The notes: a model not told the origin generated them from the sequence alone. Numbered from the stretch's first letter, positions 4,921 to 52,967 are shown. The stretch is DNA of 60,059 nucleotides from Verrucomicrobiia bacterium Tous-C4TDCM (GCA_002304315.1 NEUO01000002.1:1-60059), one strand, 5' to 3'. Numbers and translations are program-made.

Positions 4921-6000
4921 GTGGCCGATCAAGGTGACGTCAGGGCGGTTCTCGAATACGTCCCGCGGTTCCGCGGGAAGATCTTCGTCGTGCTGATCGA
5001 AGCCGGCCTGCTTCCCGAACCCGCCATCGCGGAAAGCCTCCTGGATCTCGCCGCGATGGAAGACGTTGGCGTGAAGCTCATCCTCGGCGTACTCGGCGGC
5101 GACTTGAAGGACCTCTACGACTGGACCCTCGAGTGCGAGATCATGGCCGCCCGCCTGACCCGCCCGCTCGGCGAACCCGGCGCGATCGAGGAAGCCAAGG
5201 CCATCCTTGGCCGCGGCCAGACCGTCGTCGCCGACGCCTCGTCGAACGACCCGCTCGACCCCCAGGTCGTCGACTTCACCCTCGGCATCGGCGCGGTGAA
5301 ACTCATCGCGCTGTTAGAAGAGGCCATCCTCATCGACGGCGAGCCCGTCCCCGCCGTCCGCGCCGCCGATGCCGATGCGCTCGCCATTTCCGGCACCGTC
5401 ACCGGTGCCCACCTCCTGCAAGCCGCCGCCGAAGCCTGCCGCCGCGGCGTCCCCCGCGTCCACGTCCTCAACGGCCGCCGCCAGGGCGTGCTGGTCGACG
5501 AACTCTTCTCCAACGAAGGCGTCGGCACCATGATCCACGCCGACAGCTACCGGCAAATCCGCCCGCTGCGCGAGGAGGACATCCCCGAGCTGCTCGGCAT
5601 GATCGGCCGCTCGGTCCGCCGCACCAAGCTGGTCGCCCGCAACTACGAGGACATCGAGGCGAGGATCGGCGACTACCGTGTGATGACCATCGACGACAAC
5701 GTCGTCGGCTGCGTGGCGCTCCACGACTACCCCGGCGAGAACGTCGCCGAAGTCGCCTGCCTCTACGTGAAGCTCAACCACGAAGGCCGCGGCTACGGCG
5801 TCGACCTCGTCCACCACGCCGAAGCCCTGGCCCGCGAAAAGGGCATCCCCCGCGTCTTCGCCCTGACCACCCGCGCCGCCGACTTCTTCGAAAAGCGCGT
5901 CGGCTACTCCCCCTGCGATCCGGACGCTTTGCCGACGACCCGCCGCCAGCAGTTGGAAGAAAGCGGCCGCGATTCGAAGGTCTTCGAGAAGCGCCTTTGA
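4921..6000 (+). CDS. argA: N-acetylglutamate synthase (amino-acid kinase-like domain + C-terminal GNAT)
   Basis: GTG start; ArgA-type C-terminus IRPLREEDIPELLGMI...LVARNYEDIEARIGDYRVMTIDDNVVGCVALHDY...EVACLYVKLNHEGRGYG. Confidence 0.8.
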   Translation: MADQGDVRAVLEYVPRFRGKIFVVLIEAGLLPEPAIAESLLDLAAMEDVGVKLILGVLGGDLKDLYDWTLECEIMAARLTRPLGEPGAIEEAKAILGRGQTVVADASSNDPLDPQVVDFTLGIGAVKLIALLEEAILIDGEPVPAVRAADADALAISGTVTGAHLLQAAAEACRRGVPRVHVLNGRRQGVLVDELFSNEGVGTMIHADSYRQIRPLREEDIPELLGMIGRSVRRTKLVARNYEDIEARIGDYRVMTIDDNVVGCVALHDYPGENVAEVACLYVKLNHEGRGYGVDLVHHAEALAREKGIPRVFALTTRAADFFEKRVGYSPCDPDALPTTRRQQLEESGRDSKVFEKRL

Positions 6001-6004
6001 TTCC

Positions 6005-6230
6005 CACCGGGTGCGCAAGCCTCCGGCCCGCAGAATGGTCCCCAGAAACCCGCCGCCCATTCCAGCCCGAATCGCCCCATCGTGAACACCCCGGTGCTTC
6101 TGCGGGGCAGAGCCTCCGCGCACCCGGTGGCCTCCGGCCCGCAGAACGGCCCAACAAAGCCCCCCGCCCATTCCAGCCTGAAGCGCCCATCGTGAGCACC
6201 CCGTGCTTCTGCGGGGCAGAGCGTTGTCCG
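6005..6230. repeat. Two tandem ~110-bp intergenic repeat units
   Basis: Both units carry GCCTCCGGCCCGCAGAA, CGCCCATTCCAGCC and CTTCTGCGGGGCAGAGC; unit 1 is bounded by the 12-bp inverted repeat CACCGGGTGCGC (6005) / GCGCACCCGGTG (6118-6129). Confidence 0.85.
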
Positions 6231-6360
6231 AAGAAATAGAATGCAGCCAGTCGGACCATCTCGCGCTGCTCGGTTCGCGCACCCGGTCCGGCCCCCCCGC
6301 TGCCCCCTCCACTTTCCCGTTTCCCTCCCGCCCGATGCATGCCAGCTTCCTAACAAGCTC

Positions 6361-7767
6361 ATGAAATTGAAATTCTGCGGTGCTGCCGGCACCACCACCG
6401 GATCCCAGCACCTGCTCGAAGTCAACGGTACCCGCATCCTGCTCGATTGCGGGCTCTACCAAGGCCACCGATCGGAAAGCTACGAGGTGAACTGCTGCTT
6501 CCCTCATTTCGACCCGAGTGAAATCGACATCGTGGTCCTCTCCCACGCCCACATCGACCACAGCGGCAACCTCCCGAACCTCTGCAAGCAGGGCTTCTCC
6601 GGCAACATCTACGCCACCTTCGCCACCCGCGACCTGTGCCAGATCATGCTGGCCGACAGCGCCCACATCCAGGAGCAGGACACCGAATGGCTCAACAAGG
6701 ACCGCGCCAAGGACGGCCTGCCGCCGGTCCAGCCGCTCTATCTCGAGGAAGACGCCGAGCGCTGCCTGCGCCAGTTCATCAGCATCGGCTACGAGCGCCC
6801 GATCCCGCTCTGCGACGGCGTGACCCTGACCTTCTTCGACGCCGGTCACATTCTCGGCGCGGCCCAGGTGCTGCTCGAAATCATCGACAAGGAAGACGGC
6901 AACAAGAAGAAGCGCTTCCTCTTCTCCGGCGACGTCGGCCGCGGCGGCAACGAAATCCTGCGCGATCCCGTCGCGGTGCCGGACGTCGATTTCGTCCTGA
7001 TGGAAAGCACCTACGGCGGCCGCGAGCACGAGCTCCCGACCGGCGCCAACGATGCCTTCGGCGAAATCCTCACCGAGGCCCTCAAGCGCGGCGGCAAGGT
7101 GATGATCCCCGCCTTCGCCGTCGAGCGGACCCAGCAGCTCCTCTACGTCCTCAACCAGCTCTTCCACACCGGCAAGCTCCGCCGCGTGCCGGTCTACGTC
7201 GACAGCCCGCTCGCCGTCAACGCCACCGAGATCTTCCGCATCCACCCGGAATGCTTCAACGAAACCGTTTACCGCTTCCTCTTCGATGAGAACGATCCCT
7301 TCATCTTCGAAGGCCTCCACCTCGTCCGCGCCGTGACCGAATCGAAGCGACTGAACGACTCGACCCACGGCCCTTGCATCATCATCTCCGCCTCCGGCAT
7401 GTGCGAGGCCGGCCGCATCCGCCACCACCTCAAGAACGGCCTCGGCGATCCCAAGAACACCGTCCTCTTCGTCGGCTATTGCGCCGACAACACCCTCGGC
7501 CGCGCCATCCGCGACGGCCGCAAGACGGTCAACATCTTCGGCAAGCCGGTGCAGGTCCGGGCCAACATCGAGACCATCGACTCCTTCTCCGGCCACGCCG
7601 ACCACTCGGAACTGCTCGACTGGTTCCACCGCATGACCGGCCCGAAAAAGCGCGTCTGGCTGGTTCACGGCGAATCCGACCGATCGAATGCCCTGCGCGA
7701 CGCCCTGACCGACGAGTTCGGCGGCGCGGTGGATGTCGCGGTGCTCGGCGAGACGGTCGAGATCTAG
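6361..7767 (+). CDS. MBL-fold RNA-processing exonuclease (beta-CASP / RNA-specificity domain)
   Basis: MKLKFCGAAGTTTGSQHLLEVNG...LSHAHIDHSGNLP; FSGDVGRGG; ISASGMCEAGRIRHHL; SGHADHSELLDW. In-frame ATG 6361. Confidence 0.9.
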   Translation: MKLKFCGAAGTTTGSQHLLEVNGTRILLDCGLYQGHRSESYEVNCCFPHFDPSEIDIVVLSHAHIDHSGNLPNLCKQGFSGNIYATFATRDLCQIMLADSAHIQEQDTEWLNKDRAKDGLPPVQPLYLEEDAERCLRQFISIGYERPIPLCDGVTLTFFDAGHILGAAQVLLEIIDKEDGNKKKRFLFSGDVGRGGNEILRDPVAVPDVDFVLMESTYGGREHELPTGANDAFGEILTEALKRGGKVMIPAFAVERTQQLLYVLNQLFHTGKLRRVPVYVDSPLAVNATEIFRIHPECFNETVYRFLFDENDPFIFEGLHLVRAVTESKRLNDSTHGPCIIISASGMCEAGRIRHHLKNGLGDPKNTVLFVGYCADNTLGRAIRDGRKTVNIFGKPVQVRANIETIDSFSGHADHSELLDWFHRMTGPKKRVWLVHGESDRSNALRDALTDEFGGAVDVAVLGETVEI

Positions 7768-7800
7768 GTTCCGCCCGACCTGTCGCCCCATTCAAGTCCG

Positions 7801-8232
7801 ATGAAACGTCTCACGCTTCTACTCCATGGGGTTCTTGTTCTCGCCGCGTGCCGCGAGGAGCCGGTCCGGGTGGCTTCAAAACAGGTGGATCCACCCGCGC
7901 CAGCCGCGGAGGTTTCCAAGTCCCCGATCAAAGTCGTCGTCACAGGAAATGTCTCGAAGGGCGGTGCCCACCTGCTTCCAGCCGGAGCCTCCATTGAGGC
8001 GGCCTTCGTGGCTGCCGGCGGCTGGGCTGGTGAGGGCGGGCTGTCGCCCGACGACGGCCAACCGCCAAGTTACTGCAACCTTAAACCTGCCGGCGATCCG
8101 GCCTTAAAGCCGAGGAAGGTGCGGATCGGGGTCGACAAGGTGACGCGTAGGATTGCAGTGATGGATCCGGAGTGGAGTGGATACCAGCTCAGCGACGGAG
8201 ACATCCTGACAGTGCCCGTCGTGTTCTTCTGA
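7801..8232 (+). CDS. Small putative lipoprotein with SLBB-like segment
   Basis: MKRLTLLLHGVLVLAACREE lipobox; IKVVVTGNVSKGGAHLLPAGASIEAAFVAAGGW resembles SLBB domains. Confidence 0.65.
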   Translation: MKRLTLLLHGVLVLAACREEPVRVASKQVDPPAPAAEVSKSPIKVVVTGNVSKGGAHLLPAGASIEAAFVAAGGWAGEGGLSPDDGQPPSYCNLKPAGDPALKPRKVRIGVDKVTRRIAVMDPEWSGYQLSDGDILTVPVVFF

Positions 8233-8413
8233 CGAATACCCATCCCCGGGGTGCCACATCCCGGGAACCGCGGGATCCGACGAGGGCGAAAACCGCCGTG
8301 ACAGCCTGCATCAAAACGCTTCTCGTGACCGGGGAAGTAGCAGGCGAATCTTGCCCTCCAGGCTAAATCCCGCTGCCATCCCCTGTATTTCAAAACCGCC
8401 CGCGCCAATACCC

Positions 8414-9565
8414 ATGAAATCCCTGCTCCTGACCTTCGCCTTCGCCGCCACCGCCCTCGCCGCCGATCCGCCGACCCCGCCGGTCCTTCCCATTGGCTCA
8501 CCGGTCCCGGACTTCTCCCTGCCGGGCATCGACGGCAAGACCCACAAGCTTGCCGACTTCTCCACCGCCAAGGCGCTCTGCCTGATTTTCACCTGCAACC
8601 ACTGCCCGGATGCGATCGCCGCCGCCGGCCGGATGCAGGAAATCCACGAGGACTACCAGAAGAAGGGCGTCGCGGTCGTGGCGATCAACAGCAGCAACCC
8701 GGCCGGCCTTCGCCCCGATGAACTCGGCTACGGGGCCTTCGGCGATTCATTTGAAGAAATGACGCCCTTCGCCAAGGACTACGGCTGGACCTTGCCCTAC
8801 CTCTACGATGGTGAAACCCAGGCTCTGAGCATGGCCTGCGGCGCCCAGTCCACCCCGCACGTTTTCGTTTTCGGTGCCGACCGCAAGCTGGCTTACACCG
8901 GCCGCATGGACGATGCCGCCCGCAAGTCCGGCCCGGTTGAAAAGAGCTACCTCCGCGATGCGCTCGACGCCGTCCTCGCCGGCAAGCCGGTCGCCACCCC
9001 GACCACCCGCTCTTTCGGCTGCTCGACCAAGTGGGCATGGAAAAAGGACCAGGTGGCCGCTGACCAGAAAGCCTGGGAAGCCAAGCCGGTGACCGTCGGC
9101 AAGCTCGACGTCGAGACCGCCAAGAAGCTCCGCGCCAATGCTGCAGGCAACATCCGCCTCATCAACTTCTGGTCCACCACCTGCGGCCCCTGCGTCGCCG
9201 AGTTCCCGGAGCTGATCGACACCTACCGCCGCTTCCAGAACCGCTCCTTCGACATGGTCACCATCAGCCTCGACCCCGTCAGCGACGAGGCGAAGGTCCT
9301 CAAGTTCCTCGAAAAACAGCACGCCGCCCTGTCCAAGCGAACCGAGCCGGCCGTCGCAAAGGAAGGTCGCGCTGCCAACAATTATCTCTTCGCCGGCGAG
9401 AATCCCGACCTGCTCGCCGAGGCCATCGACGCCGAATGGACCGGCGCCCAGCCGCACACCGTGCTGCTTTCGCCGAAAGGGGAAATCCTCTGGCGTCACA
9501 ACGGCCAGATCGAGGTCGTCGAACTGCGGCGCCAAATCGTCAAGGCGCTCGAGGGGCTGCCGTGA
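8414..9565 (+). CDS. Two-domain thioredoxin-fold protein (AhpC/TSA-like + TlpA-like)
   Basis: Signal peptide; domain 1 CLIFTCNHCPDAIAAAGRMQEI; domain 2 INFWSTTCGPCVAEFPELIDTYRRF. Confidence 0.88.
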   Translation: MKSLLLTFAFAATALAADPPTPPVLPIGSPVPDFSLPGIDGKTHKLADFSTAKALCLIFTCNHCPDAIAAAGRMQEIHEDYQKKGVAVVAINSSNPAGLRPDELGYGAFGDSFEEMTPFAKDYGWTLPYLYDGETQALSMACGAQSTPHVFVFGADRKLAYTGRMDDAARKSGPVEKSYLRDALDAVLAGKPVATPTTRSFGCSTKWAWKKDQVAADQKAWEAKPVTVGKLDVETAKKLRANAAGNIRLINFWSTTCGPCVAEFPELIDTYRRFQNRSFDMVTISLDPVSDEAKVLKFLEKQHAALSKRTEPAVAKEGRAANNYLFAGENPDLLAEAIDAEWTGAQPHTVLLSPKGEILWRHNGQIEVVELRRQIVKALEGLP

Positions 9566-9576
9566 CCTCGAGCGCC

Positions 9577-9686
9577 TTGGACTGCGGCAGCCTGCTGCCG
9601 CTTTGTTGCCACAGCCTGCTGTGGAGCCAGGCTGATTCGTCAGCAGGCTGACGAGGGAGAGCGGCGGCGGGCTGCCGCAGTCCGAA
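9577..9686. repeat. Nested modular hairpin element (CCTG/CAGG tetraloop units)
   Basis: GCGGCAG-CCTG-CTGCCGC, CCACAG-CCTG-CTGTGG, CGTCAG-CAGG-CTGACG enclosed by outer arms TTGGACTGCGGCAGCC / GGCTGCCGCAGTCCGAA. Confidence 0.9.
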
Positions 9687-9690
9687 GCCC

Positions 9691-10701
9691 TCAGCAAGCG
9701 CCCCAGAAATCCCCGCCCTCGACATACCCGGCCTTCGCCGCCAACCCCGCAACCTCTTCTCTCCCCCCGGGCACGCCGACCGCCGAAAGCAGCACTGCCT
9801 CCCGCCAGCGGCGGCCGAACTGCTCCAACCCCGCCACCTCCGCGCCGTGGATCGTCTCCCCGATCCGCCGCGGATGGACATCGAAGAATCCGCACACCGC
9901 GATGTTCTTCGCCTGCAACTCCAGCGCCAGCGTCTTCCCGATCGGCCCCGCTCCGGCGATCACCACGCCGCGCTGCTTCACCGCCGGAATTCGCGACAGG
10001 AAATGGGCCCGCATCCGGTGACGACAGGCATCGCCATAACGCGGATCGCTCCGGGTCAGCCGCCCCGGCGAATCCCTCCACTTCAGCAGCGTCTCCGGCA
10101 CCTTCCCGAAGACCGCACCGCGCTCCAGCATCCGCAGATACAGGTCGTGGTCCTCCGCCCAAGCCACTTCCCGATAGCCGCCCGCCGCCTCGACCGCCGA
10201 CTTCCTCATCAGCGAGCTCGGATGGACCATCGGATTCTCGATGAAACGCGCGCTGGCGATCCGGACGGGCTCCATGAGCGTGTTCACCCAGTCCACGTGT
10301 CGGACCATCCCGTCGCCCAGCGGCGAAAAGATCTCCACCGCGCAGCCGATCACGTCCAATTCCGGCCTCTCGCAGGCCATCGCCCACTGCCGGCTCAGCC
10401 GCTGCGGATGACTCACGTCGTCGGCATCCATCCGCGCCAGCCACTCGCTCGTCGCAGCCCGCCCCGCCGTCGACGAAGCGCCCACCACCCCCGGCAGACC
10501 TTCGTTCGAAAGCAGCCGTATCCGAGAATCCCCGCCTGCCAGCTCCTGCACGACCTCGGCAGATCCATCGGTCGAATGATCATCCACCGCCAGCAGCTCC
10601 CAATCGCCGAAATCCTGCGCCAGCACGCTGGCCAACGCCTCGGGCAAGGTCGCCGCCGCGTTACGGAACGGCATCACGATGGAAATCCGCGGCCGCATCA
10701 T
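9691..10701 (-). CDS. Glycosyltransferase family 2
   Basis: RISIVMPFRNAAATLPEALASVLAQDFGDWELLAVDDHSTDGSAEV; LARMDADDVSHP. Confidence 0.92.
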   Translation of the reverse strand: MMRPRISIVMPFRNAAATLPEALASVLAQDFGDWELLAVDDHSTDGSAEVVQELAGGDSRIRLLSNEGLPGVVGASSTAGRAATSEWLARMDADDVSHPQRLSRQWAMACERPELDVIGCAVEIFSPLGDGMVRHVDWVNTLMEPVRIASARFIENPMVHPSSLMRKSAVEAAGGYREVAWAEDHDLYLRMLERGAVFGKVPETLLKWRDSPGRLTRSDPRYGDACRHRMRAHFLSRIPAVKQRGVVIAGAGPIGKTLALELQAKNIAVCGFFDVHPRRIGETIHGAEVAGLEQFGRRWREAVLLSAVGVPGGREEVAGLAAKAGYVEGGDFWGAC

Positions 10702-15656: not shown

Positions 15657-15763
15657 GGTTGGATAGTGCTTGGGTCGTTGGGAGCTATCCTCCGGTTTCG
15701 GAGGCGGAGGGTATTTGGCGGCAAAGCGGTGCCGCGTCCAGCCCCGAAAGCGTGACGCTGCCG

Positions 15764-17788
15764 TTACTCCTCCGGAATCTCGTCTGGATCGACCGGCAAG
15801 GCCCGCGGGACCTCTTCCACAGCGGGCTCATCCGCCCCTTCATCGGTCTCCAGGATCTCGACCTCCTGCGCGCGCAGAACGCCCTCCTCCGGGGTTGCTT
15901 CACCCACTTCCACGGCGGCCGGAATTTCCTCCTCGTCGATAATCTCCAATGCCTTGGGTGCTGGCGCGAGGATCTCCTTGAACTCTTTCTTCAAGGGCTC
16001 GAAGAACGACTTCACGATCGGAGCCGCATTCTTGCCACCGCTCGGATTCTCACCCGGGCGGCCTTCATACACCGCGGCGAAGGCGAAGCGGGGCTCGTCG
16101 TAGGGAAGGAAACCGGCGAACCAGGCGAGGTTCGTCTTGCTCGATATCTTCCACTGGGCCGTGCCGGTCTTGCCGCAGAGCTCGGTGAAACTCAGATCCG
16201 CAGAGCCACCGGTGCCGCCCTCGACCACCCGCCTCATCCCTTCACGCACCACTTGGATGGCGTCCGCGTCGATCCCCAGCCAATTCCGACGTTCGGGGAC
16301 GGCCTGGCGGATCACCCGGCCGAAGGGGTCCTGCACCTGGTGGATCAAGTGCAGCTTCGGCAGCACGCCGCCGTTGGCGATCCCTGCCATGGCCTGCGCG
16401 ACCTGAAGCGGCGAGACTTCAAGGAAACCCTGTCCGATCGACAGATTGAAGGCATCCCCATCCATGAAGCGGCGCTTCTGAACAGACAACATCCACTCAT
16501 TGGTCGGCAGAAAGCCCGCGGTCTCGCCGATCAAATCGAGGCCCGTCTTCTCCCCGAATCCGAAGCGCCGCGCAGTGCCGAGGAACGCATTCGAACCGAG
16601 CCGCATGCCGACCTTGCCGAACCAGATGTTGTTCGACGAGGCGAGCGCCGACTTCACGTTGATCGCCCCCCCCGCCTTCTTGTTGTGGTTGTTGAAGGTA
16701 TGACCGCCCAAGGTGATGGAGGCCGGGCAATCGATGGTGGTGTTCTCCTCGATTTCCCCGTCGTTCAGCGCCGTCAAGGCGACGATCGGCTTGAAACAGG
16801 AGCCCGGTGGGTAGGCCGACTGGAAAGCACGGCCGTAGAGCGGCGTCGCGGGATCGTCCTTGAGCGCATCGTATTCCTTGGTGCCGATCCCCGGGATGAA
16901 CATGTTGAGGTCGAAGGACGGCCGGGAAGCCATGACCAGCACCTCGCCGGTGTTCACGTCGATCAGCACGAAGGCCCCGCGGCGGGCCTTGTCACGCAGC
17001 ACTTCCTCGGCGTGCCTCTGCCATTCCAGATTCAGCGTGGTCACCACCGCGCCGCCCGGGCGGGGGCGCCTGACCTGGTCTTTCAGCAGCTCGCGTCCCT
17101 GCTCGTCGTAGAGCAGCTTCTTCATCCCCGGTTGGCCGGTCAGCTCCTTGTTGAAAAGCGCCTCGAAGCCCGCCCGGCCCTCGGTTTCCTCCCACAACGG
17201 CTCGTTGAAATTGATCGGCCCGGTCGGCAGTTTCCCGACGCTGCCGGTGTAGCCGATGATATGGGCGGCCAGTTCTCCTTCCGGATAGTAGCGCTGATAA
17301 ACCGGATGAAGGATCAAGCCGCTGCTCAGACCTCCTTCGATCTTTTCTTTCTGCTCCTTGCCGATGTGAGTGGAGATCAACAACGGCAGCCAGCGACGGT
17401 CGTTGTAATGATTCCAAAGCTCGTCGTCGGTCGGCTCGCTGATCGTCGGATAGAGCAACTTGGCGGTCGCCAGATGCCCTCGCGCCCATTTGATCACAAA
17501 GTCCCGGTCGGCCTTTTCGAACTGCCGGAATTGCAAAGCGAGCTGCCAGGCGACGCGGCTCTGGGCGAGCGGGGCACCATTGCGGTCTAGGATCGGCCCA
17601 CGCGGCCCGGGGATCGCCAGCGTGATGGTCCGCGCATCCTTGCGGGTGAAGATCGAACCATCACCGGCAGTTCCACCGGCGGCCGGTGTGGTCGGCAGTG
17701 ACGCAAGGTCCTGCGCCGGGGCGACGGAAGCCGCGAGGATCCCGGATATGAGGGTGGTAATGAGCTTACTCACGGAACGTAGAAGCAA
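15764..17788 (-). CDS. mrdA: Class B penicillin-binding protein 2
   Basis: GPRGPILDRNGAPLAQSR; SxxK PGSCFKPI; SxN ASSNNIW; KTG LCGKTGTAQW. Confidence 0.85.
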   Translation of the reverse strand: MLLRSVSKLITTLISGILAASVAPAQDLASLPTTPAAGGTAGDGSIFTRKDARTITLAIPGPRGPILDRNGAPLAQSRVAWQLALQFRQFEKADRDFVIKWARGHLATAKLLYPTISEPTDDELWNHYNDRRWLPLLISTHIGKEQKEKIEGGLSSGLILHPVYQRYYPEGELAAHIIGYTGSVGKLPTGPINFNEPLWEETEGRAGFEALFNKELTGQPGMKKLLYDEQGRELLKDQVRRPRPGGAVVTTLNLEWQRHAEEVLRDKARRGAFVLIDVNTGEVLVMASRPSFDLNMFIPGIGTKEYDALKDDPATPLYGRAFQSAYPPGSCFKPIVALTALNDGEIEENTTIDCPASITLGGHTFNNHNKKAGGAINVKSALASSNNIWFGKVGMRLGSNAFLGTARRFGFGEKTGLDLIGETAGFLPTNEWMLSVQKRRFMDGDAFNLSIGQGFLEVSPLQVAQAMAGIANGGVLPKLHLIHQVQDPFGRVIRQAVPERRNWLGIDADAIQVVREGMRRVVEGGTGGSADLSFTELCGKTGTAQWKISSKTNLAWFAGFLPYDEPRFAFAAVYEGRPGENPSGGKNAAPIVKSFFEPLKKEFKEILAPAPKALEIIDEEEIPAAVEVGEATPEEGVLRAQEVEILETDEGADEPAVEEVPRALPVDPDEIPEE

Positions 17789-19257: not shown

Positions 19258-19414
19258 ATGGGAGATTGTAGATGGGAGATTTCCCGTTGCCGTTCTGCCT
19301 TTCATCTACCATCCACCATCTTCCATCTTCCATCCACCATCTTCCATCCACCATCTTCCATCTTCCATCTTCCATCTTCCATCTTCCATCTACCACCCAC
19401 CATCTACCATCCGC
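19234..19414. repeat. Inverted heptanucleotide arrays: 7 units (19234-19282), 20-nt spacer, 16 units (19303-19414)
   Basis: Left: CAGATGG CGGATGG CAGATTG TAGATGG GAGATTG TAGATGG GAGATTT. Right: CATCTAC CATCCAC CATCTTC x2 CATCCAC CATCTTC CATCCAC CATCTTC x5 CATCTAC CACCCAC CATCTAC CATCCGC. Confidence 0.97.
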
Positions 19415-43209: not shown

Positions 43210-43506
43210 GCGCACCCCTTGCTTGCAGGGAGCGGGGGCGGTTGGGCAAGCCGGATTGCGGGAATTCTCGCAATGACTTCGCACGACCACATCTGAGCTG
43301 GCGATTGCCAGCTCCAAAAGACGACGCGGACGCCCCCAACCGAAATCCCCGCGAGTTGAGGTTTTCACCCTACCTCGGGGTAGCATCCAAACCTACCCGC
43401 GAAGGGGGAGATTTGACGGCCACCGTGCAGGGATCACCTTTCAGAACGTTAGGGTTTTTGTATTTACGTTTTACATATTCTGCAGTGTCGACGCCTTTTC
43501 CACGCC

Positions 43507-45337
43507 ATGAACGTCATTTCCAAAGCCAGAAAGCGGCATTTGAATCAAAGCGCTCCAAGTGCTGGTCAACACGGCTTTGCATTGGTGATCTCTCTCACTT
43601 TGATGGTGTTACTGACCGTCCTTGCAATCGGGTTGCTGACCCTGTCGACAATCTCTTTGCGAGCCTCCTCACAAGGGGAGGCGATGGCGATTGCTCGCCG
43701 CAACGCCCGTTTGGGGCTGATCTTGGCAATTGGCCAATTGCAGAAATCGGCCGGCCCCGATCAACGGATCACCGCTCCGGCCCGGATCGCCGAGGATTCC
43801 GCCCCGGCCTGGCTCGGCGGTGTCTGGTCGGGCAAACTTGCCACGGCGTCGGAACCATCCGCAGACAAAGACGCGGACTTCCGCGGATACCTGGTCTCGG
43901 GTGGCGAGAACCGCCCATCACCCCAGCCCTCCGATCTCCCCGATTTGAGCTCCGGCACCCTTTTGGTAGGCGAGGGATCCCTCGGCGAAGGAGCCAAACC
44001 CGATGGCTTCGTCCGTGCTCCCAAAGTCAACTTGTCCGCGTCCGCCAAGGGTGTCGACGGTCGCTTTGGCTGGGGGGTTTTGGATGAAGGAACGAAAGCC
44101 AAGGTGGACCTCGTCAGAAAACCCGGAAATTTTGGCGCGGCTACCCGCCAGGCGGCCATGGGATCTCCCGCACGCTTCGGGCTTGAAAGCATCGATGGCC
44201 TGGCTGCTTACGATTGGTTCGAAGGCTCCGACCAAGCTCGCCTGATCACCCTACCCACCTCCCGCCTGATGGCGGGCATGCCATCTTTGCCCCCTCTCCA
44301 GCAGGATATCACGACAGTTCATCGCGGTTTGATCACTGATTCCGCCCGCGGCGGTCTCCGTGAGGACCTGAGCCTGCTTTTCGCGGGGACGGCATTGCCC
44401 TCAGCGTATTCTTCCAAAAGGCTGTACGACGACCCCACCGTCTTGACCGAGGCCTCGAATCCCTAGTGGTCGCAGCTTTTTGATTACGCGTCCCTCTATC
44501 GCAAGACCACCAGCATCAATGGCACCCAGGGAATCCTTGCCACCGTCCCGGCGAACTACAATCCGGTCAAATACGACGCCAGATCTCAGACCAACAAGGT
44601 GAGTCCCCAGGCCCCCCGCGGCATGCTGCTCATGCCGGTCGTAGCGAAGGTTCAAATGCAGTTCTCCTTGGTGGCCAAGGATGCCCACGGGAACTGGGGC
44701 GGAGGCACTGACCGGGACTTTTCGACCCCAGACGACAACTACATGGTCTACATGATCTACTCGCCGATCGTCACGCTCTACAATCCTTACAACACACCGA
44801 TTTCCTTCGACGAACTTCGCATCGATTTCAAAGACCTGCCGATCGGTTTCAGGTTCTACCGGAACGGCCAGCCCCAGACCACCCAACTCGCCCATTTCAA
44901 CCAACTCTATGCCTATCACGACACCAACACCAAGGTCGCGAAGACATTCGGGATCAACTTGCGGAGCGCCATCACCACCAGTCCGGCGGCCCCGGTCGTG
45001 ATGGAACCCGGCGAGAATCTCGTTTTTGGTGAATCCGTCAGCGGCGACTCCACCTGGAATACGGGCGGAATGTTCGACTGGCAGGACAACCTGACCTCCA
45101 ACATCCCCCTTGCCCCCGGATACCTTCCGCATCCGCAGTTACGGGGAGTCGGTGGACCCTTCCAACAAGGTGACGGCCCGTGCCTGGTGCGAAGCCGTCG
45201 TCCAGCGCGTTCCGGACTTTGTCGATCCCGCGGACTCGCCGCAATCTGCCATCGTAATCCTCACCAAGCCCAACGCGCGCTTCGGCCGTCGCTTTGAAGT
45301 GACAGGTTTCCGCTGGATCTCCCCCGAAGAAGTCTGA
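43507..45337 (+). pseudogene. Degenerate prepilin-like giant surface protein (Verru_Chthon cassette A-like), copy A1
   Basis: GFALVISLTLMVLLTVLAIGLLTLSTISLRASS; in-frame TAG at 44464-44466 with homologous sequence continuing in the same frame; then frame shift and inferred deletion near 45105-45120; C-terminus WCEAVVQRVPDFVDPADSP...RRFEVTGFRWISPEEV resumes in another frame. Confidence 0.88.
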
Positions 45338-45391
45338 ACAGGGGTCTCCACCGCCACTTGCCACGATCGCTCAATTCGCCATTGTCCCAAG

Positions 45392-46111
45392 ATGCTCCGC
45401 ACCCCGCTTGCCCTGCTCCTCGGTCTCACCTTCGCGATTTCGGCTCAGGAAACCCGGAAGATATCGCTCAGGACCCTATGCTTTGCCCACACCGACGGGG
45501 TCGTGAAAGTCTTCGTGGCAGGCAGCGAACCGGGCACCAGCACCGAGGTTCCGCTCTTTACCGAGACGTTTTCCCGGCCCGTGGAGGTCGTCGCCATCGA
45601 CGGGAAATTGACCTTCGCCATCTCGGCGCCAACCGCCGGACAAGCCAAGGAACCCACCCCCGCCCTGCCTGCGGTAAAGCTTCCCTATGGGTCCAAGATA
45701 CTCTGTCTCTTTCTGCCGAATGCGGGAAAAAAGGGTCAGCCCTATCAAGTGGTCGCCGTGGCGGACGATCTCGCTTCCTTTCCCTTGGGTAGCGTCAAAC
45801 TGATGAATCTCACTCCCGCGGTCCTTCGCTTCGATCTCGGGGAACATGCCGGACCGAAAGGGGTAACCGTCGAGCCGGGGAAAACCGGCATGCTCGCATC
45901 TATCCGCAAGGTGAATCATCTGAATCAGTACGATGCCAAAGGCCTCTATCAGATGAAGCCTGGCGAATTCGTCCAGTTTTACAACTCCCGTTGGCGCTCC
46001 GTGGCTGCCAAGCGGGATATCGCCATCGCCTACCTGGATCCGCAATCGAAGCAACCGATGGCGAATCTCTACGAAGACGCTCCCGCGTTCGAGATCCCCA
46101 AGCAGCCCTGA
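45392..46111 (+). CDS. Secreted protein of unknown family, copy B1
   Basis: Signal peptide; ISLRTLCFAHTDGVVKVFVAGSEPG...; paralog of 49862-50572. Confidence 0.8.
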   Translation: MLRTPLALLLGLTFAISAQETRKISLRTLCFAHTDGVVKVFVAGSEPGTSTEVPLFTETFSRPVEVVAIDGKLTFAISAPTAGQAKEPTPALPAVKLPYGSKILCLFLPNAGKKGQPYQVVAVADDLASFPLGSVKLMNLTPAVLRFDLGEHAGPKGVTVEPGKTGMLASIRKVNHLNQYDAKGLYQMKPGEFVQFYNSRWRSVAAKRDIAIAYLDPQSKQPMANLYEDAPAFEIPKQP

Positions 46112-46345
46112 GGCTGGCGCGGTTTCGGCGAGCCTCTCCAATCTCCTCCGGGGGCTTGTCCGGCATTTTCGGTGCCCATCGGGGGTGACGGCTACCACCG
46201 TGGGTGCTTGACACCGAACACGGCAAGAGTCATCACCGCCCTTCAAATATATTTGGATATTCCGAAAGCCCCCGAGTCGACGCCAGATTCAATGTATTTA
46301 CAATTGAGTTTAGAACGGTAGATTTTCCCAATCCAAGCACGCTCG

Positions 46346-49300
46346 ATGAACCCAATCCGTCCCAAGAACGCCCGGCGAACTTCTTCCTTCCGAATCCACT
46401 CCAGCTCCCGCGGGTTCGCCCTGGTCATCTCCCTCACGCTGATGGTTCTGCTGACCGTGGTCGCCGTCGGACTGCTCACTCTTTCTTCGATTTCCCTCCG
46501 CTCGTCGAGTCAGGGCGAAGCGATGCAGATGGCCCGCAGCAATGCCCGGATGGCTCTCAGCCTCGCGATCGGCCAGCTCCAGAAATCAGTCGGCCCCGAC
46601 CAGCGGATCACCGCTCCGGCCAATCTCCTCAGCCCTCAAGCTCATCCCGGGCTGACCGGCGCTTGGGAATCAGCCAAGCTGTCGCCCGATGGAGACCCCG
46701 GTTTGCAAGCAGCCAAAAAGGGCAGCCGACAAAACGACGCAGCCAACGGGGAGTTCATCGGTTGGTTGGCCTCGCAGTCATGGGGTGCATCGACGCAGGC
46801 ACCTGCCACACCTCCCACCCCGGCGGCCGGGGGGCGGACCGCCACGCTTCTTAATCCGCTTTCCGCAGCCAGCAGTGGCACGCCGCTGGAGATGGACATT
46901 CTCCCGGTGAGCGACACCGGCGGCATCGCTTGGACCAGCATCGATGAGAGCGTGAAGGCGCGCTTCGACCTTCCTGTCGATAACTCCGGTTTGACCGCAG
47001 AGGCTCGCAAGGCCCGTCTCCGTGCCCCGGCCCGCAGCGCACCCGAAGTCATCGAAGGGCTGGGTGATTTCGAACTGGACCAGGAAACAGCCGCCAAAAT
47101 GGCAAGCTACCGCCAAGGCGAGTTCGTTGGTGGCGACAAGCAGGCTTTTCTTGCCCAGCACGATGCCCTCACGCCGTGGTCGCTCAGCCTGCCGGTCAAC
47201 GTCGCCGACGGGGGACTGAAAGCCGACCTGACTCGCGCTTTCGAGTCCGCCGCCCTCCCACCGGAACTCGCGGGCCGGTATCTCTACTCGGGATTGAAAA
47301 CCCCGCTAACCCCCGCCGATCCGCTCTTTTCCAACCTCGGGGCTTACTACCAGCTCTACGCATCCAGCGCTGGGGGGACCCGCCCGCTGACCTCCGCAGT
47401 GCCGAAGAACTATCGTCCGACCGTCTATGACGCCCGGACCAGCGCCAGCGTGCCGAGCCTGGCCTCGCTGGACGGAAACGTCGTCGCACCGGTCGTCACC
47501 AAGGTTCAGGTGGCATTCTCCCTCGTCTCGCGGGAAGCGCACGGCCAATGGCGGCAGACGATCCCCGACAGGACCAGCGATCCCCTCCGGACCTTCATGG
47601 TCTACCTGATCTACACCCCGGTGGTCACCCTCTACAATCCCTACAACGCGCCCATCAATGTCAACGCCCTCAAGGTGACATTCAAGCACCTCCCGCTCGC
47701 CTTCCAATTCTTCCGCAACGGCGTCGCTCAAAACACGTCGCCCGCGCTGCTCAGCCAGTTTCACATTTCCTCGGAGAACCGGACCGATTGGGAAGACCAG
47801 TTCACCTCCACCCTTAGCAATACCGCCGGCTCGTCTTCGGCCAACCTGCTGCTGCAACCCGGCGAAGCCAAAGTCTTCGGGGTCAATCATCCCAGGGGAA
47901 CCACTTGGAGCGGCATGACCAACTACCTTTGGCAAAACGACCTCGCTAGCAGCAAGACCCTCAATCTCTTCGCCGGTCCCGGCTGGAACTTCCGCAGCGG
48001 ATTCATCGTCGACTGGCTCCGCCCCGCCGGCTCCGGCCGCACCTCGGACAACGGCACCCTCGGCGTCTTCGGAGCCAGGGGTGACGACCGCATCAACGTC
48101 GCCTGCTCGCCCAAGATGCCCGGCGGTTCCAATGGCCAGTTCTCGGTCGACATCTCGGCGAGTATCGGCAACCGCGACACCCCGCTCGGGAGCTACCTTT
48201 ACCGCTACGGCGACGAGAAGCGCCTGGTCGAAGCGATGCAAAGCGGCACCAGCCCGTCCTACGGCAAGATTACATTCCCGTTCCGGCGGGAGAAGGACTG
48301 GAATCTCAACGAAATTTACCAGCCGAACTCCGACAGCACCCCGATCGAGAACTGGACCGGTCCGAAGCAGTTCGCCATTTTCACCCTCGCCGACCGCACC
48401 GCCCAGGACTCGCTTTACCCAAGCAAGCCGGTCGCCCATTCCTCCTTCGCCCACCAGGTCCTGAAAATGGACATCTCCAGCATCCACCCCGCCCAGATGC
48501 CGATGGAAATGTCCTTCCTGCCGATCCGCACTGAAGGCGCCAACACCGTCGGTTCGATCGAGGCGGACCCGCTCGACCGGGTTTACCATTTCTCCGGCAG
48601 CCGCCTCGCGACCGGCCTGCTGAACTACCCCAGCATCCAGGTCCCCGCAGCGCCGCTGGTGAATATCGGGAGCTTCCGCCACGCGAATCTTGCCAGCAGT
48701 GGCCACTTCCCGCTGAATACCCACTCGGTCGGCGAATCCCGGGCCAATCCGCTCCTGCCCGCTGAAAAGGCCCGCCTCGCGACCAGCGCCCACGGCTACG
48801 CTCTGAGCGACCACTCCTGGCTCGCCAACAACAGCCTTTGGGACGGCTACTACTTTTCCTCGCTGCGCACCGCCGATGAGGCAAAAGTCTTTTACACCAG
48901 CGGCAGCACTCCCCTCAATCCGCGCCTCACCCCACGCTCGCCGGGAGGGACAGCACCCGAAAAAGCGGCCACTCTCGCGGTTTCGGAAAGCGCCTGGACT
49001 TCCAATGCCGCCTCCCAGTGGATCAAGGGCAGCTTCAACGTGAACTCCACCTCGGTCGCCGCATGGAAAGCCATGCTCGCCTCGCTGGGCGACGCATCGA
49101 TCCCGGTGCTCGACCCCACCAGCTCGAAGGAAAGCGAAGTCGATCCGACCGGCTACCCCATGCCGCGCAACCTCCGCGGCCTCGCAGGCCGGGTCTCCGG
49201 TGGCGACACCAATCAAAATCGCTGGGCCGGATTTCGCGACATCGAGGAAAAGCAGCTCCAAACCCTCGCCGAGGAAATCGTCGAGCAGGTCCGACTGCGC

Positions 49301-49828
49301 GGACCCTTCGGTTCCATGTCGGAATTCGTCAACCGTCGCCTGACCTCTGAGAGCGACAAGGCTTCCGGTGCCGGCACCCTCGAGATGGCCATCCGCGAGA
49401 CCGACATCAACTCAAACTCCCGGAGCGCGAATCCCCGCATGGTGACCGCCGCCGATACCGCCAACTTCGGATATGCCAACGTCACCGCGGCGCTCGGCGA
49501 CACCGAAGAAGGTGCGAATTCCTTCCTCAGCCAAGGCGACCTGCTGGAGGCCTTGGGCGCTTCCCTGACCGTGCGCTCCGACACTTTCGTCGTCCGTGCC
49601 TATGGCGACACCAAGGATGGCAAGGGAAACATCATCGCCAAGGCTGTGTGCGAAGCAGTTGTCCAGCGCGTGCCCCCCTTCGTCGATTCCACCGACGCGC
49701 CGGAAAAGGTCCAAGCGGCTCTCGGCGACGACGCCCGCACGATCGGCTCGCTGACCGAACTGAACCGCCGCTTCGGTCGCCGCTTCGAGGTCGTCAGCAT
49801 GCGCTGGCTCTCCCCGGAAGAGATTTGA
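46346..49828 (+). CDS. Prepilin-like giant surface protein (Verru_Chthon cassette A-like), intact copy A2, 1160 aa
   Basis: SRGFALVISLTLMVLLTVVAVGLLTLSSISLRSSSQGEAMQMARSNARMALSLAIGQLQK (PilX/GspK-like N-terminus); C-terminus RRFGRRFEVVSMRWLSPEEI. Confidence 0.88.
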   Translation: MNPIRPKNARRTSSFRIHSSSRGFALVISLTLMVLLTVVAVGLLTLSSISLRSSSQGEAMQMARSNARMALSLAIGQLQKSVGPDQRITAPANLLSPQAHPGLTGAWESAKLSPDGDPGLQAAKKGSRQNDAANGEFIGWLASQSWGASTQAPATPPTPAAGGRTATLLNPLSAASSGTPLEMDILPVSDTGGIAWTSIDESVKARFDLPVDNSGLTAEARKARLRAPARSAPEVIEGLGDFELDQETAAKMASYRQGEFVGGDKQAFLAQHDALTPWSLSLPVNVADGGLKADLTRAFESAALPPELAGRYLYSGLKTPLTPADPLFSNLGAYYQLYASSAGGTRPLTSAVPKNYRPTVYDARTSASVPSLASLDGNVVAPVVTKVQVAFSLVSREAHGQWRQTIPDRTSDPLRTFMVYLIYTPVVTLYNPYNAPINVNALKVTFKHLPLAFQFFRNGVAQNTSPALLSQFHISSENRTDWEDQFTSTLSNTAGSSSANLLLQPGEAKVFGVNHPRGTTWSGMTNYLWQNDLASSKTLNLFAGPGWNFRSGFIVDWLRPAGSGRTSDNGTLGVFGARGDDRINVACSPKMPGGSNGQFSVDISASIGNRDTPLGSYLYRYGDEKRLVEAMQSGTSPSYGKITFPFRREKDWNLNEIYQPNSDSTPIENWTGPKQFAIFTLADRTAQDSLYPSKPVAHSSFAHQVLKMDISSIHPAQMPMEMSFLPIRTEGANTVGSIEADPLDRVYHFSGSRLATGLLNYPSIQVPAAPLVNIGSFRHANLASSGHFPLNTHSVGESRANPLLPAEKARLATSAHGYALSDHSWLANNSLWDGYYFSSLRTADEAKVFYTSGSTPLNPRLTPRSPGGTAPEKAATLAVSESAWTSNAASQWIKGSFNVNSTSVAAWKAMLASLGDASIPVLDPTSSKESEVDPTGYPMPRNLRGLAGRVSGGDTNQNRWAGFRDIEEKQLQTLAEEIVEQVRLRGPFGSMSEFVNRRLTSESDKASGAGTLEMAIRETDINSNSRSANPRMVTAADTANFGYANVTAALGDTEEGANSFLSQGDLLEALGASLTVRSDTFVVRAYGDTKDGKGNIIAKAVCEAVVQRVPPFVDSTDAPEKVQAALGDDARTIGSLTELNRRFGRRFEVVSMRWLSPEEI

Positions 49829-49861
49829 CAAGCGCCGCCCGCCCGAAACTTTCTTCTGCCG

Positions 49862-50572
49862 ATGAAGTGCTTCCGATTCCTCGCCGTGGCCTGCGCCGCA
49901 CTCGCCACGCTTGTACCATCCCTCAGCGCTCAGGACGCCCGCAAGGTCAAGCTGCGGACACTCTGCTTCGAACACGTCGGCGAGATCCGGAAGGTCCTGC
50001 TCGTCGGGTCGGATGACAAGACCGTCGAAGTCGACCTCTTCACCAGCGGCTTTTCCGACGAGATCGAGGCCACTGTCAGCGGACCCGATCTTCGCTTCGC
50101 CGTCGCCACCACCGACGCGTCCGGTAAAGTCACCCTCAAGACCGTGGCAAGCGGCAAGGCGGCTGCCGGCACCCGCCAGCTCGCGGTCTTTCTCCCCGGC
50201 ACGAAAGAGGGCACGCCCTACCGACTGATAGTCATCGATGACTCCGAAGAAAAGTTCCCCCTCGGCACCACCCTCGCCTTCAACTTCGCGTCCGTGCCGG
50301 TCCGCTTCGCAATCGGGGAATACTCCAGCGACCTCAAGCCCGGCGGTCAGGCGCTCATCCCCCAGGCCAGGAAAGTCAACGAGATGAACCAGTGCAACGT
50401 GGTCATTTCCTTCGCCGACAAGACCGACAAATGGGTCCCGGTCAACAATACCCGGTGGCTCTCCCTGCCCCAGGAGCGCGCGCTTGCAATCGCTTTTATC
50501 CACCCCGTCACCAAGCAACCGACCGTCAACAGCTACCGGGAAACCCCGCCGTGGAAGCTCCCCAAGCTCTGA
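49862..50572 (+). CDS. Secreted protein of unknown family, copy B2
   Basis: Signal peptide ending LSAQDA; VKLRTLCFEHVGEIRKVLLVGSDD...; paralog of B1. Confidence 0.82.
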   Translation: MKCFRFLAVACAALATLVPSLSAQDARKVKLRTLCFEHVGEIRKVLLVGSDDKTVEVDLFTSGFSDEIEATVSGPDLRFAVATTDASGKVTLKTVASGKAAAGTRQLAVFLPGTKEGTPYRLIVIDDSEEKFPLGTTLAFNFASVPVRFAIGEYSSDLKPGGQALIPQARKVNEMNQCNVVISFADKTDKWVPVNNTRWLSLPQERALAIAFIHPVTKQPTVNSYRETPPWKLPKL

Positions 50573-50635
50573 ATCCCGGCACAAATCCGGAAATTTAATG
50601 CTACCGGATCTGGCCGGCCGGGTTTAGTTGACCAT

Positions 50636-52201
50636 ATGAAACCACGCGGATCATCCGTCATCCTTCTTCTCGCCGTGCTCGGCGGTGGAATCGCCGGGTG
50701 GCTTTTGACTCGCACGACGATCCCGGAGGAGGCCCCGCCCGTGGCGGTGAAAACACCGGAAGCACCGCGCCTCTCCGATCCCGCCCCGAAAACCAGCAAG
50801 CTCGGCAAACGGGAGCGCAGCATGGTCCGCGACGGCGAAGCGGCCGAAGCCGGGGCCCTGCAGAACCAGCGCTCGCTGAGGTTCTCCGATCGCGATGCCT
50901 ACGACCGGTTTCTCGCCGCCGCCAAGGGCAAGGGCATCGCCATCCTCGGATCCATCGACCGCCTCAACGCCCTTCACGTCGGCTTCCTATCGCTCGATGA
51001 ATTGAACGCCCTGCTCGATGGCAGCGAAGAGGCCGGCTTCATCTTCCCCGTCTCCCTCCCGACCCCGAAGACCGAAGGCGTCCAGGAAGGTGCCGTCGGC
51101 TTTGGCGAAAGCCTGCTCTCCTGGCTCGGCATCACCAGCGACAATTCGAGCTACGGCAAGGGCTTCAAAATCGCCATCCTCGACACCGGCTCGACCCTCG
51201 ACGGTGCCCGCAACCAGTTCCTGGTCGCTGCTCCCGCTGACCCTGCCAATTGGAACGGGCACGGCACCGCGGTGGCGGATCTCATCCTCCAGATAGCCCC
51301 CTCCGCCGACCTCTACTCCTGGCGGGTCGCGAACGACGAAGGCCAGTCGAACAGCTTCCTCCTCGCCCAGGGCATCCTCGCCGCGGTCGATGCCGGCGTC
51401 GATGTGATCAACATCTCGATGGGCTCCTACGGCAATTCGCCGATTCTCCGAGACGCCGTGGAAACCGCCCTCGCAGCCAAGGTCATGATCTATGCATCCG
51501 GCGGTAACGAAGGCTACGAGCAACTCGCCTACCCCGCGGCTTATGAAGGCGTTGTCGGTGTCGGGGCGGTGGATGCCAATGGAAGCTATCTCAATTTCTC
51601 CAATACGGGCAACGTCACCATGACCGCGCCCGGTCTCGACCTCGTCACCGCTTGGACCGGTGGCGAAAGCGTCTATTTTACCGGCACCTCGGCCAGCTCC
51701 CCGATCGGCGTCGGCGTGCTGGCGGCCGCGGCGTCCCAAGGCGGCAACCGTATCAGCACCCGGCAGGCCTACGATCTGGTCACCGGAAACCTCAACGAGG
51801 CCGGCGCGCCGGGTCTCGACAGCTACTACGGCATCGGCATGGTCGACCTGGGCAGGGTCCTGCAATCCGGCCAATCCGGCATCACCGACGCGGCCATCGC
51901 CTCGAACTTTGTCAGCACCGGCAATGGCGGAAATCCCCAGCTACAGGTGACCGTCCAGAACCGGGGCACCACCACCCTGGTCAATACCCCGGTGGAAGTC
52001 ACCACCCCGGCGGGAACCACTTCCCTCAACATCACCACGCTCCAGGCCGGCGATATCGCGACTTTCAACCTGCCCTTGTCCTACACTGGCGGAAGCGCCG
52101 TCATCCAGTCAAAGGTGCAGGTTTCGGGTGGCATCAATGACCTGAAGCCTTCCAATAACCGGCGGACCGATGTTTATACCCCGCCCGCGACCACTGATTG
52201 A
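50636..52201 (+). CDS. S8 family (subtilisin-like) serine protease with CARDB-like C-terminus
   Basis: Catalytic motifs IAILDTGST, WNGHGTAVADL, GTSASSPIGVGVLAAA; C-terminal VQNRGTTTLVNTPVEVTTPAGTTS. Confidence 0.92.
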   Translation: MKPRGSSVILLLAVLGGGIAGWLLTRTTIPEEAPPVAVKTPEAPRLSDPAPKTSKLGKRERSMVRDGEAAEAGALQNQRSLRFSDRDAYDRFLAAAKGKGIAILGSIDRLNALHVGFLSLDELNALLDGSEEAGFIFPVSLPTPKTEGVQEGAVGFGESLLSWLGITSDNSSYGKGFKIAILDTGSTLDGARNQFLVAAPADPANWNGHGTAVADLILQIAPSADLYSWRVANDEGQSNSFLLAQGILAAVDAGVDVINISMGSYGNSPILRDAVETALAAKVMIYASGGNEGYEQLAYPAAYEGVVGVGAVDANGSYLNFSNTGNVTMTAPGLDLVTAWTGGESVYFTGTSASSPIGVGVLAAAASQGGNRISTRQAYDLVTGNLNEAGAPGLDSYYGIGMVDLGRVLQSGQSGITDAAIASNFVSTGNGGNPQLQVTVQNRGTTTLVNTPVEVTTPAGTTSLNITTLQAGDIATFNLPLSYTGGSAVIQSKVQVSGGINDLKPSNNRRTDVYTPPATTD

Positions 52202-52967
52202 AGCGCTGCTGATCGCCGCGATGCTGGGCACTTCCCAGGCGGCGGACATGCGGGTCGCCCCGAATGCCGGCGCGCTACCGGTCAACCAGTTGAGCATTTC
52301 CGGGAACGCCTGCGGTCCCGCTGCCCTGCTCGCCTCGTTCCGTTGCGGCAACGAAGCCTGGCAACGGGCAAGCACCGCGCTGGCCGGCACGACCGATCGC
52401 GAGCAACTCCGCCACTGGATCCGCCACCACGGCGCACGTCCCTCCACCACCTTGAAAGGACGACTCCGCTGGTCCGCCAATGGCATCAACGTCGAAGATC
52501 TGGTTGCGGCGGCCAATGAGATGAACCGGCCGCTGTTTCTCCCGCCGCTCCTCCACGACGATCTGTTCCTCCGCTCCGGGGAGAAGCCCGAGGCTCTGCT
52601 CCGCCGGACCCGCGAGCGCTTCGACCGATCTCTCGACAAGGGCATCCCGCCGATCCTCAGTCTCCGCCGCTTCGTCCTCCGCAAAGGCGTTTGGACCGCG
52701 GTCCAAGGCCACTTCGTCACCGTCACCGCGGCACCTCGCAAGCTGGCTCGCGGCGAGTCCGCGTTCACGTTCCATTATCTTGATCCCTGGGGCGGAAAGC
52801 GCTGCGAAGGAACCCTAGGCCTGCCCCGGCAAGCGATCCTCGCCCCAGCCGGGCAGACTCCTCCCTGCCTCGAAGCCATCGTCCCCGCCGCGCTCATCGG
52901 TAGCAACACGGTCCGCCGCGGCGAGATCACCGCCGTGGTGCCAGCCGACGTGATCGGCCGCTGGTGA
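52170..52967 (+). CDS. C39-like cysteine peptidase-fold secreted protein
   Basis: Signal peptide; SGNACGPAALLASFRCG (Cys); VQGHFVTVTAA (His); FHYLDPWGGKR (Asp). Overlaps the S8 gene 3' end. Confidence 0.65.
   Translation: MFIPRPRPLIEALLIAAMLGTSQAADMRVAPNAGALPVNQLSISGNACGPAALLASFRCGNEAWQRASTALAGTTDREQLRHWIRHHGARPSTTLKGRLRWSANGINVEDLVAAANEMNRPLFLPPLLHDDLFLRSGEKPEALLRRTRERFDRSLDKGIPPILSLRRFVLRKGVWTAVQGHFVTVTAAPRKLARGESAFTFHYLDPWGGKRCEGTLGLPRQAILAPAGQTPPCLEAIVPAALIGSNTVRRGEITAVVPADVIGRW

What the first reader, a model, noticed from the sequence alone, without database searches (positions are those of the whole stretch)
43507..52967. Duplicated cassette: giant prepilin-like protein A + secreted partner B, followed by S8 and C39-like proteases
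Seen: order A1 (decayed)-B1-A2 (1160 aa)-B2-S8 subtilase-C39-like peptidase, all on + strand. A1/A2 share a PilX/GspK-like N-terminus (GFALVISLTLMVLLT, no Glu at +5) and a distinctive C-terminus (RRFGRRFEV...RW.SPEE). B1/B2 share (K)LRTLCFxH...KVxVxG and a signal peptide. Knowledge: the A protein resembles the Verru_Chthon cassette A type (recalled from memory). The B family is not one I recognise. Inference: A and B are obligate partners in a surface or secretion apparatus, and the two exported peptidases may process it.
Basis: partly seen in the sequence, partly recalled or inferred. Interest (0 to 1): 0.72.

Follow-up and report, generated by a model that had tools for sequence, protein, structure and literature searches.

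The report
Paired giant pilin-like and Ig proteins
In this bacterium and many of its relatives, a very large pilus-tip-like protein is encoded, in many diverging copies, directly ahead of its own small secreted partner protein, an unnamed pair that probably forms interchangeable tips of a surface filament; the two proteases next door belong to a separate, older gene pair.

Summary
A and B are a real unit. In this genome 13 of 14 A genes have a B directly downstream. In 77 named loci, 67 of 73 testable A genes do, and about 72 of 73 B genes sit beside an A. In 30 loci from a phylum-wide search, 28 have A just upstream of B and two have it just downstream. A and B diverge together, copy by copy. 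A has a prepilin/GspK-like N-terminus (invariant Gly-Phe, no Glu at +5) but fails the Verru_Chthon_A and GspK cut-offs. Relatives with true Verru_Chthon A carry three prepilins next door; here the neighbour is B, a secreted protein that AlphaFold models as two Ig-like domains (pLDDT 93). B matches no Pfam or NCBIfam family. S8 and C39-like form a separate, single-copy, overlapping pair, found without A-B neighbours in seven genomes, so they are not part of the unit. Best guess: A is a giant tip (pseudo)pilin and B its dedicated partner. Neither physical contact nor function is shown, and neighbouring genes give no hint of a substrate.

The parts
43459..43468 (+). Promoter-like element TGTATTTACG upstream of A1
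   Evidence: TGTATTTAC occurs only twice in the 60,059-base window, once ahead of each A. It is enriched about 48 bases upstream of A starts: 14 of 25 against 0.1 expected
43507..45337 (+). A1, broken giant prepilin-like gene (pseudogene)
   Evidence: TAG at 44464-44466, about 535 codons deleted with frame change at 45123/45125; C-terminal remnant to TGA at 45335-45337
45392..46111 (+). B1, secreted partner of A1 (239 aa), intact
   Evidence: B family; orthologues 41-80% identical sit between A and S8 in relatives
46293..46302 (+). Promoter-like element TGTATTTACA upstream of A2
46346..49828 (+). A2, giant prepilin/GspK-like protein (1160 aa)
   Evidence: N-terminal matches to TIGR02600 and NF037980 below cut-off; AlphaFold pLDDT 86.7, pTM 0.86, long N-terminal helix 24-82
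49862..50572 (+). B2, secreted two-Ig-domain partner of A2 (236 aa)
   Evidence: 33 bases after the A2 stop; AlphaFold pLDDT 93.4; no Pfam/NCBIfam match
50636..52201 (+). S8 subtilase; neighbour, not part of the A-B unit
   Evidence: PF00082 5.6e-24; triad D183/H209/S352 in 21/21; occurs without A-B
52170..52967 (+). C39-like cysteine peptidase, overlaps S8; not part of the A-B unit
   Evidence: Q40/C48/H181/D205 conserved at the 95% level in 21 aligned proteins; one copy per genome

Best explanation
A and B form a two-protein module. A is made as a prepilin-like precursor: a short basic leader ending in Gly, a hydrophobic helix without Glu at +5, then a head of about 1,080 residues. After leader cleavage it would sit at the tip of a type IV pilus or type II-like pseudopilus, as GspK does, because a large head and the lack of Glu5 make it a poor fit inside the filament. 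B is exported by its signal peptide, folds into two Ig-like domains and binds the A protein made from the same operon, as a structural partner of the tip. Each genome carries many diverged A-B pairs, giving alternative tips. Shown: gene pairing, close spacing, co-divergence, N-terminal type, predicted folds, presence of secretin and ATPase genes. Inferred: processing, tip position, A-B binding, surface role. The substrate or surface bound is unknown.
For: Pairing: 13 of 14 own-genome A genes have a B just downstream; 67 of 73 A genes and about 72 of 73 B genes in named loci; 30 of 30 fetched loci of a phylum-wide B search lie beside an A. A-stop to B-start is mostly 0-50 bases, with ATGA-type overlaps. 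Co-divergence: Mantel r 0.67 over 66 pairs; shuffling partners within genomes gives mean 0.19, maximum 0.52, 0 of 1000 reaching the observed value. A N-terminus: invariant Gly-Phe and no Glu5 in 40/40; NF037980 GspK matches 25/40 and TIGR02600 35/40 members. The A model has the long N-terminal helix; GspK of the GspIJK tip (3ci0_K) ranks second in the fold search, weakly (E 0.055). B: two Ig-like sandwiches. Secretin and T2SS/T4P-type ATPase genes are present. Pseudopilus tip complexes and PilY1/minor-pilin tip complexes are described in PMC6211770 and PMC7541494 (abstracts seen).
Against: A falls below every family cut-off, and the fold match to GspK is not significant. Small-genome relatives (probably Akkermansia) have A genes whose downstream protein is only doubtfully a B. 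B1 stays intact though A1 is broken. No neighbouring pilus, secretion or glycan genes point to a function. No interaction was tested.
Confidence: 0.5

Rival explanations
1. B is a dedicated periplasmic chaperone or assembly factor for A. It holds the giant head until A is placed in the filament and is not part of the finished structure.
For: B is a two-Ig-domain secreted protein with no lipobox or further membrane anchor visible, encoded right after its client, and it co-diverges with it.
Against: Chaperone-usher (PapD-type) chaperones are not among the listed fold hits; B is not shared between clients although there are more than ten of them per genome.
Confidence: 0.25
2. A is a substrate receptor of a type II-like secretion system and B is its private cargo, secreted by recognition of the cognate A head.
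For: GspK-like N-terminus; B is exported and paired one to one; the pseudopilus acts as a piston that extrudes exoproteins (PMC6211770).
Against: B has no catalytic signature, matches no family, and is a plain two-Ig fold.
Confidence: 0.12
3. One reading: A, B, S8 and C39-like form one surface apparatus with the proteases processing A or B.
For: In about ten genomes of the genus the S8-C39 pair lies between or beside A-B pairs; both enzymes keep their catalytic residues.
Against: S8-C39 is single-copy against roughly 10-20 A-B pairs, occurs without A-B neighbours in G001, G004, G011, G017, G018, G022 and G023, and is absent from nearly all other A-B loci.
Confidence: 0.04
4. On origin, compatible with the best explanation: A is a very divergent Verru_Chthon cassette protein A whose three prepilin partners were replaced by B.
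For: Shared N-terminus (profile-profile E 1.5e-6), similar length, weak colinear motifs such as the DE-K-N block and the TxRSDTF block; genomes with one lack the other in the sample searched for both.
Against: No detectable homology above noise over the remaining ~1,050 residues.
Confidence: 0.3

Closest known systems
Verru_Chthon cassette protein A (TIGR02600) with cassette proteins B, C, D (TIGR02598, TIGR02599, TIGR02596)
   Same: Giant protein with a GspK/PilX-like N-terminus, first gene of a small cassette, several copies per genome, in Verrucomicrobiota
   Different: A2 scores 24 bits against a cut-off of 332 and aligns only over the first 68 columns. Its partner is one secreted two-Ig protein, not three prepilins.
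Type II secretion minor pseudopilin GspK (NF037980; 3ci0 chain K)
   Same: N-terminal helix type without Glu5; weak fold-search match, rank 2
   Different: A2 is about four times longer than the 307-position GspK model, scores 21.6 bits against a cut-off of 130, and is not in a gsp operon
PilY1 with minor pilins (type IV pilus tip complex)
   Same: Large tip proteins with dedicated small partners (PMC7541494, PMC13190605)
   Different: No PilY1 family match; here the large protein itself carries the prepilin-like N-terminus and the partner is a small Ig protein
PepT1/PepT2 extracellular domain (5a9i) as fold neighbour of B
   Same: Two tandem Ig-like sandwiches (TM 0.49/0.57)
   Different: 12% identity, part of a mammalian membrane transporter; a fold likeness only
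SusC/SusD pairs of Bacteroidota (from general knowledge)
   Same: Adjacent, highly multicopy gene pairs at the cell surface
   Different: Unrelated proteins; no glycan-enzyme neighbours were enriched around A-B

Membership tests
Verru_Chthon cassette protein A (TIGR02600) | Whole-protein score above the curated cut-off (332.3 bits) | tested here: not met
   24.1 bits, residues 23-81 only; no own-genome match over cut-off
Verru_Chthon cassette protein A (TIGR02600) | Homology along the length | tested here: not met
   hhalign of 40 A against 8 TIGR02600 members: N-terminal 68 columns only; rest not above noise
Verru_Chthon cassette protein A (TIGR02600) | Followed by cassette prepilins B, C, D | tested here: not met
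   Downstream gene is the B family; TIGR02598 has no match in the own genome and none over cut-off in four genus members; true cassettes do show B, C and D
Type II minor pseudopilin GspK (NF037980) | Score above cut-off (130 bits) | tested here: not met
   21.6 bits, residues 22-87
Type II minor pseudopilin GspK (NF037980) | Prepilin-type Gly/Phe site with no Glu at +5 | tested here: met
   Gly-Phe in 40/40; no Glu at +5
Type II minor pseudopilin GspK (NF037980) | GspK fold | tested here: inconclusive
   Rank 2 in PDB fold search but E 0.055, probability 0.11
Type IV pilus PilX N-terminal domain (PF14341) | Score above gathering cut-off | tested here: not met
   12.3 against 25.5 bits
Any named family (for B) | Significant match in Pfam or NCBIfam (B1, B2), or in Pfam for 51 B relatives | tested here: not met
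   PADLOC also none
Subtilase S8 (PF00082) | Domain score and Asp/His/Ser triad | tested here: met
   85.4 bits; triad in 21/21
Peptidase C39-like | Gln/Cys/His/Asp catalytic set | tested here: met
   Q40, C48, H181, D205 conserved at 95% or more in 21 proteins
Peptidase C39-like | Pfam C39 family match | tested here: not met
   No Pfam match at E 1
Type IV pilus / type II tip component | Cleavage by prepilin peptidase and assembly in a filament | not testable with these tools
   needs experiment

The most novel reading that the evidence does not exclude
A-B is an undescribed two-component system spread across Verrucomicrobiota: a large paralogous set of interchangeable filament tips, behaving genomically like SusC/SusD pairs, in which each giant tip pilin carries its own Ig-fold partner that helps set what the tip binds.
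Probability: 0.3. Interest if true: 0.78.

Novelty: new variant of a known kind. Interest (0 to 1): 0.6.

Why it matters
Some of these bacteria devote on the order of 1% of the genome to A-B pairs (roughly 10-20 pairs of about 4.2 kb), yet B matches no family in Pfam or NCBIfam and A is recognised only by its first 60 residues. A dedicated-pair rule with strong co-divergence makes a clear test of partner specificity possible. Akkermansiaceae have been reported to use a type IV-like pilus to attach to glycans (PMC13174399); a repertoire of alternative tips would be a plausible specificity layer for it, but that link is untested.

Tried and rejected
The full B alignment had no stretch conserved enough for a collection scan, so the A alignment was used. 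A glycan-utilisation link was tested through neighbouring genes within 2 kb against genes over 5 kb away: no CAZyme, sulfatase or secretion family was enriched, so no substrate is claimed. Anti-phage defence: no PADLOC match. Papers naming Verru_Chthon: none in the held library. PDB sequence searches with A and B profiles gave nothing. Recent tandem duplication of A1-B1 into A2-B2 was rejected on the B tree.

Full report
What is there. The window is contig C112 of a 4.28-Mb, 72%-complete draft genome. Named members of its genus-level group include Haloferula rosea, Haloferula luteola and Luteolibacter marinus; this naming is inferred from matching contig lengths and positions. The gene order is A1, B1, A2, B2, S8, C39-like, all on the + strand. 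A1 is a pseudogene: an in-frame TAG at 44464-44466 and a deletion of about 535 codons with a frame change, judged against an intact relative that is 73% and 76% identical on the two sides. A2, B1 and B2 are intact.

A and B belong together. In the own genome 14 A genes were recognised by their N-terminus, and 13 have a B match at the expected distance downstream. Of the B loci first fetched from this genome and 38 relatives, nearly every one has the A C-terminus directly upstream. In 77 named loci, 67 of 73 A genes with room downstream have a B, and 71 of 73 B genes are next to an A on the same strand. One of the two exceptions is only an over-long ORF, so the figure is about 72 of 73. A phylum-wide draw of 146 genomes searched with the B profile found B in 16, mostly from other families of the class, with three from outside the class. 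Of the 30 loci fetched by that search, five from the window's own genome, 28 have A just upstream and two have A starting just after B. Spacing from A stop to B ORF start is mostly 0 to 50 bases, with several 4-base overlaps, as in a co-translated operon.

They also diverge together. For 66 pairs the A and B distance matrices correlate at r 0.67. Swapping partners among paralogues inside the same genome drops this to 0.19 on average and 0.52 at most, with none of 1000 reaching the observed value; distances between paralogues within a genome correlate at 0.69. So B follows its own A, not only the species tree.

What A is. Its first 60 residues match TIGR02600 (Verru_Chthon cassette A) and NF037980 (GspK) below their cut-offs; 35 and 25 of 40 relatives do the same. 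Gly-Phe at the presumed cleavage site is invariant, and Glu at +5 is absent, as is known for GspK-type minor pseudopilins (general knowledge). A profile-profile comparison with eight true Verru_Chthon A proteins aligns only the first 68 columns (E 1.5e-6). The rest shows only weak, colinear hints. True cassettes carry A plus three prepilins, B, C and D; in the genus of the window TIGR02598 is absent or below cut-off. Among genomes searched for both, those with full TIGR02600 proteins lack the A of this window and the reverse, apart from one marginal hit. AlphaFold gives A2 a confident model with a 59-residue N-terminal helix. The PDB comparison has no significant match; GspK from the GspK-I-J tip complex is second, at E 0.055.

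What B is. AlphaFold models B2 with mean pLDDT 93.4, as a signal-peptide helix and two beta-sandwich domains. The best solved likeness is the two-Ig extracellular domain of PepT1/PepT2, with TM about 0.5 and 10-14% identity, a fold likeness only. No Pfam or NCBIfam family matches. A may therefore exist without a standard B, whereas B was almost never seen without A.

The proteases. S8 has a conserved triad, and the C39-like protein a conserved Gln/Cys/His/Asp set. The C39-like gene is single-copy in every genus member where it was found, 18 of 19 including the own genome counted among those listed (absent only from the 61%-complete G005), and it lies beside S8 throughout the group. The usual surroundings are a PLP enzyme, S8-C39, a squalene/phytoene-synthase-like gene and a kinase. 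A-B pairs lie before and/or after S8-C39 in many relatives, but in G001, G004, G011, G017, G018, G022 and G023 the S8-C39 pair stands without them, in six of these beside the PLP enzyme. Other A-B loci lack S8-C39, with the exception of L169. The simplest reading is that the proteases are an older resident of a place where A-B pairs have come and gone.

Age of the duplication. B1 groups with B genes found between A and S8 in relatives (support 100/99), whereas B2 groups with genes from MiE-16apr19-166, Roseibacillus and others (98/97). The two pairs are old paralogues set side by side, not a fresh duplication.

A shared upstream element. TGTATTTAC occurs twice in the whole window, once ahead of each A, and in 14 of 25 upstream regions tested against 0.1 expected, mostly about 48 bases before the start. 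A broader set of 64 upstream regions gives 19 with TATTTAC, so the element is common at this locus and not general to the family. TTTACA followed 17-18 bases later by TATTTT-like sequence looks like a sigma-70-type promoter (own reading of the sequences).

Mechanism. The best reading is a tip module: A as a giant minor (pseudo)pilin, B as its private Ig-fold partner, many pairs giving alternative tips. Secretin and pilus/type II-type ATPases are encoded. A known parallel is the tip complex of minor pilins with PilY1 (PMC7541494). A type IV-like pilus for glycan attachment has been proposed in this bacterial family (PMC13174399), but neighbouring genes give no support for a glycan role of A-B. 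Processing, filament position, binding and function remain inference.

Noticed in passing
window 43459-43468 and 46293-46302: A TGTATTTAC element occurs exactly twice in the window, ahead of A1 and A2, and recurs about 48 bases before A genes in relatives; promoter-like.
   Followed up: partly
window 50636-52967: S8 and C39-like overlap by 32 bases and form a conserved single-copy pair, usually beside a PLP enzyme, in nearly all genus members; its function is unknown.
   Followed up: partly
L052 (G003) 8281-9234 and 15758-16537: The two B genes flanking S8-C39 are almost identical here, suggesting recent duplication or gene conversion at the locus.
   Followed up: no
L225 (G040) 5432-10089: A genes are broken into several frames in this small-genome relative, so A decay is not unique to the window.
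   Followed up: no
L169 1571-3950 and 6436-11005: A more distant relative has S8-C39 on the opposite strand near an A-B pair; no PLP enzyme on the short contig.
   Followed up: no
L222 3379-4308, L224 12273-13184: Secreted ~300-aa proteins downstream of A genes in small-genome relatives may be very divergent B proteins (weak colinear profile match).
   Followed up: partly
window 19258-19400: An open frame begins with a repetitive stretch (FHLPSTIFHLPS...), a short tandem repeat read as protein.
   Followed up: no
L094, L122, L123, L148, L153: Contigs labelled Akkermansia muciniphila (isolate MiE-16apr19-166) appear to belong to the window's own genus-level group (G006); the label is probably wrong.
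   Followed up: no
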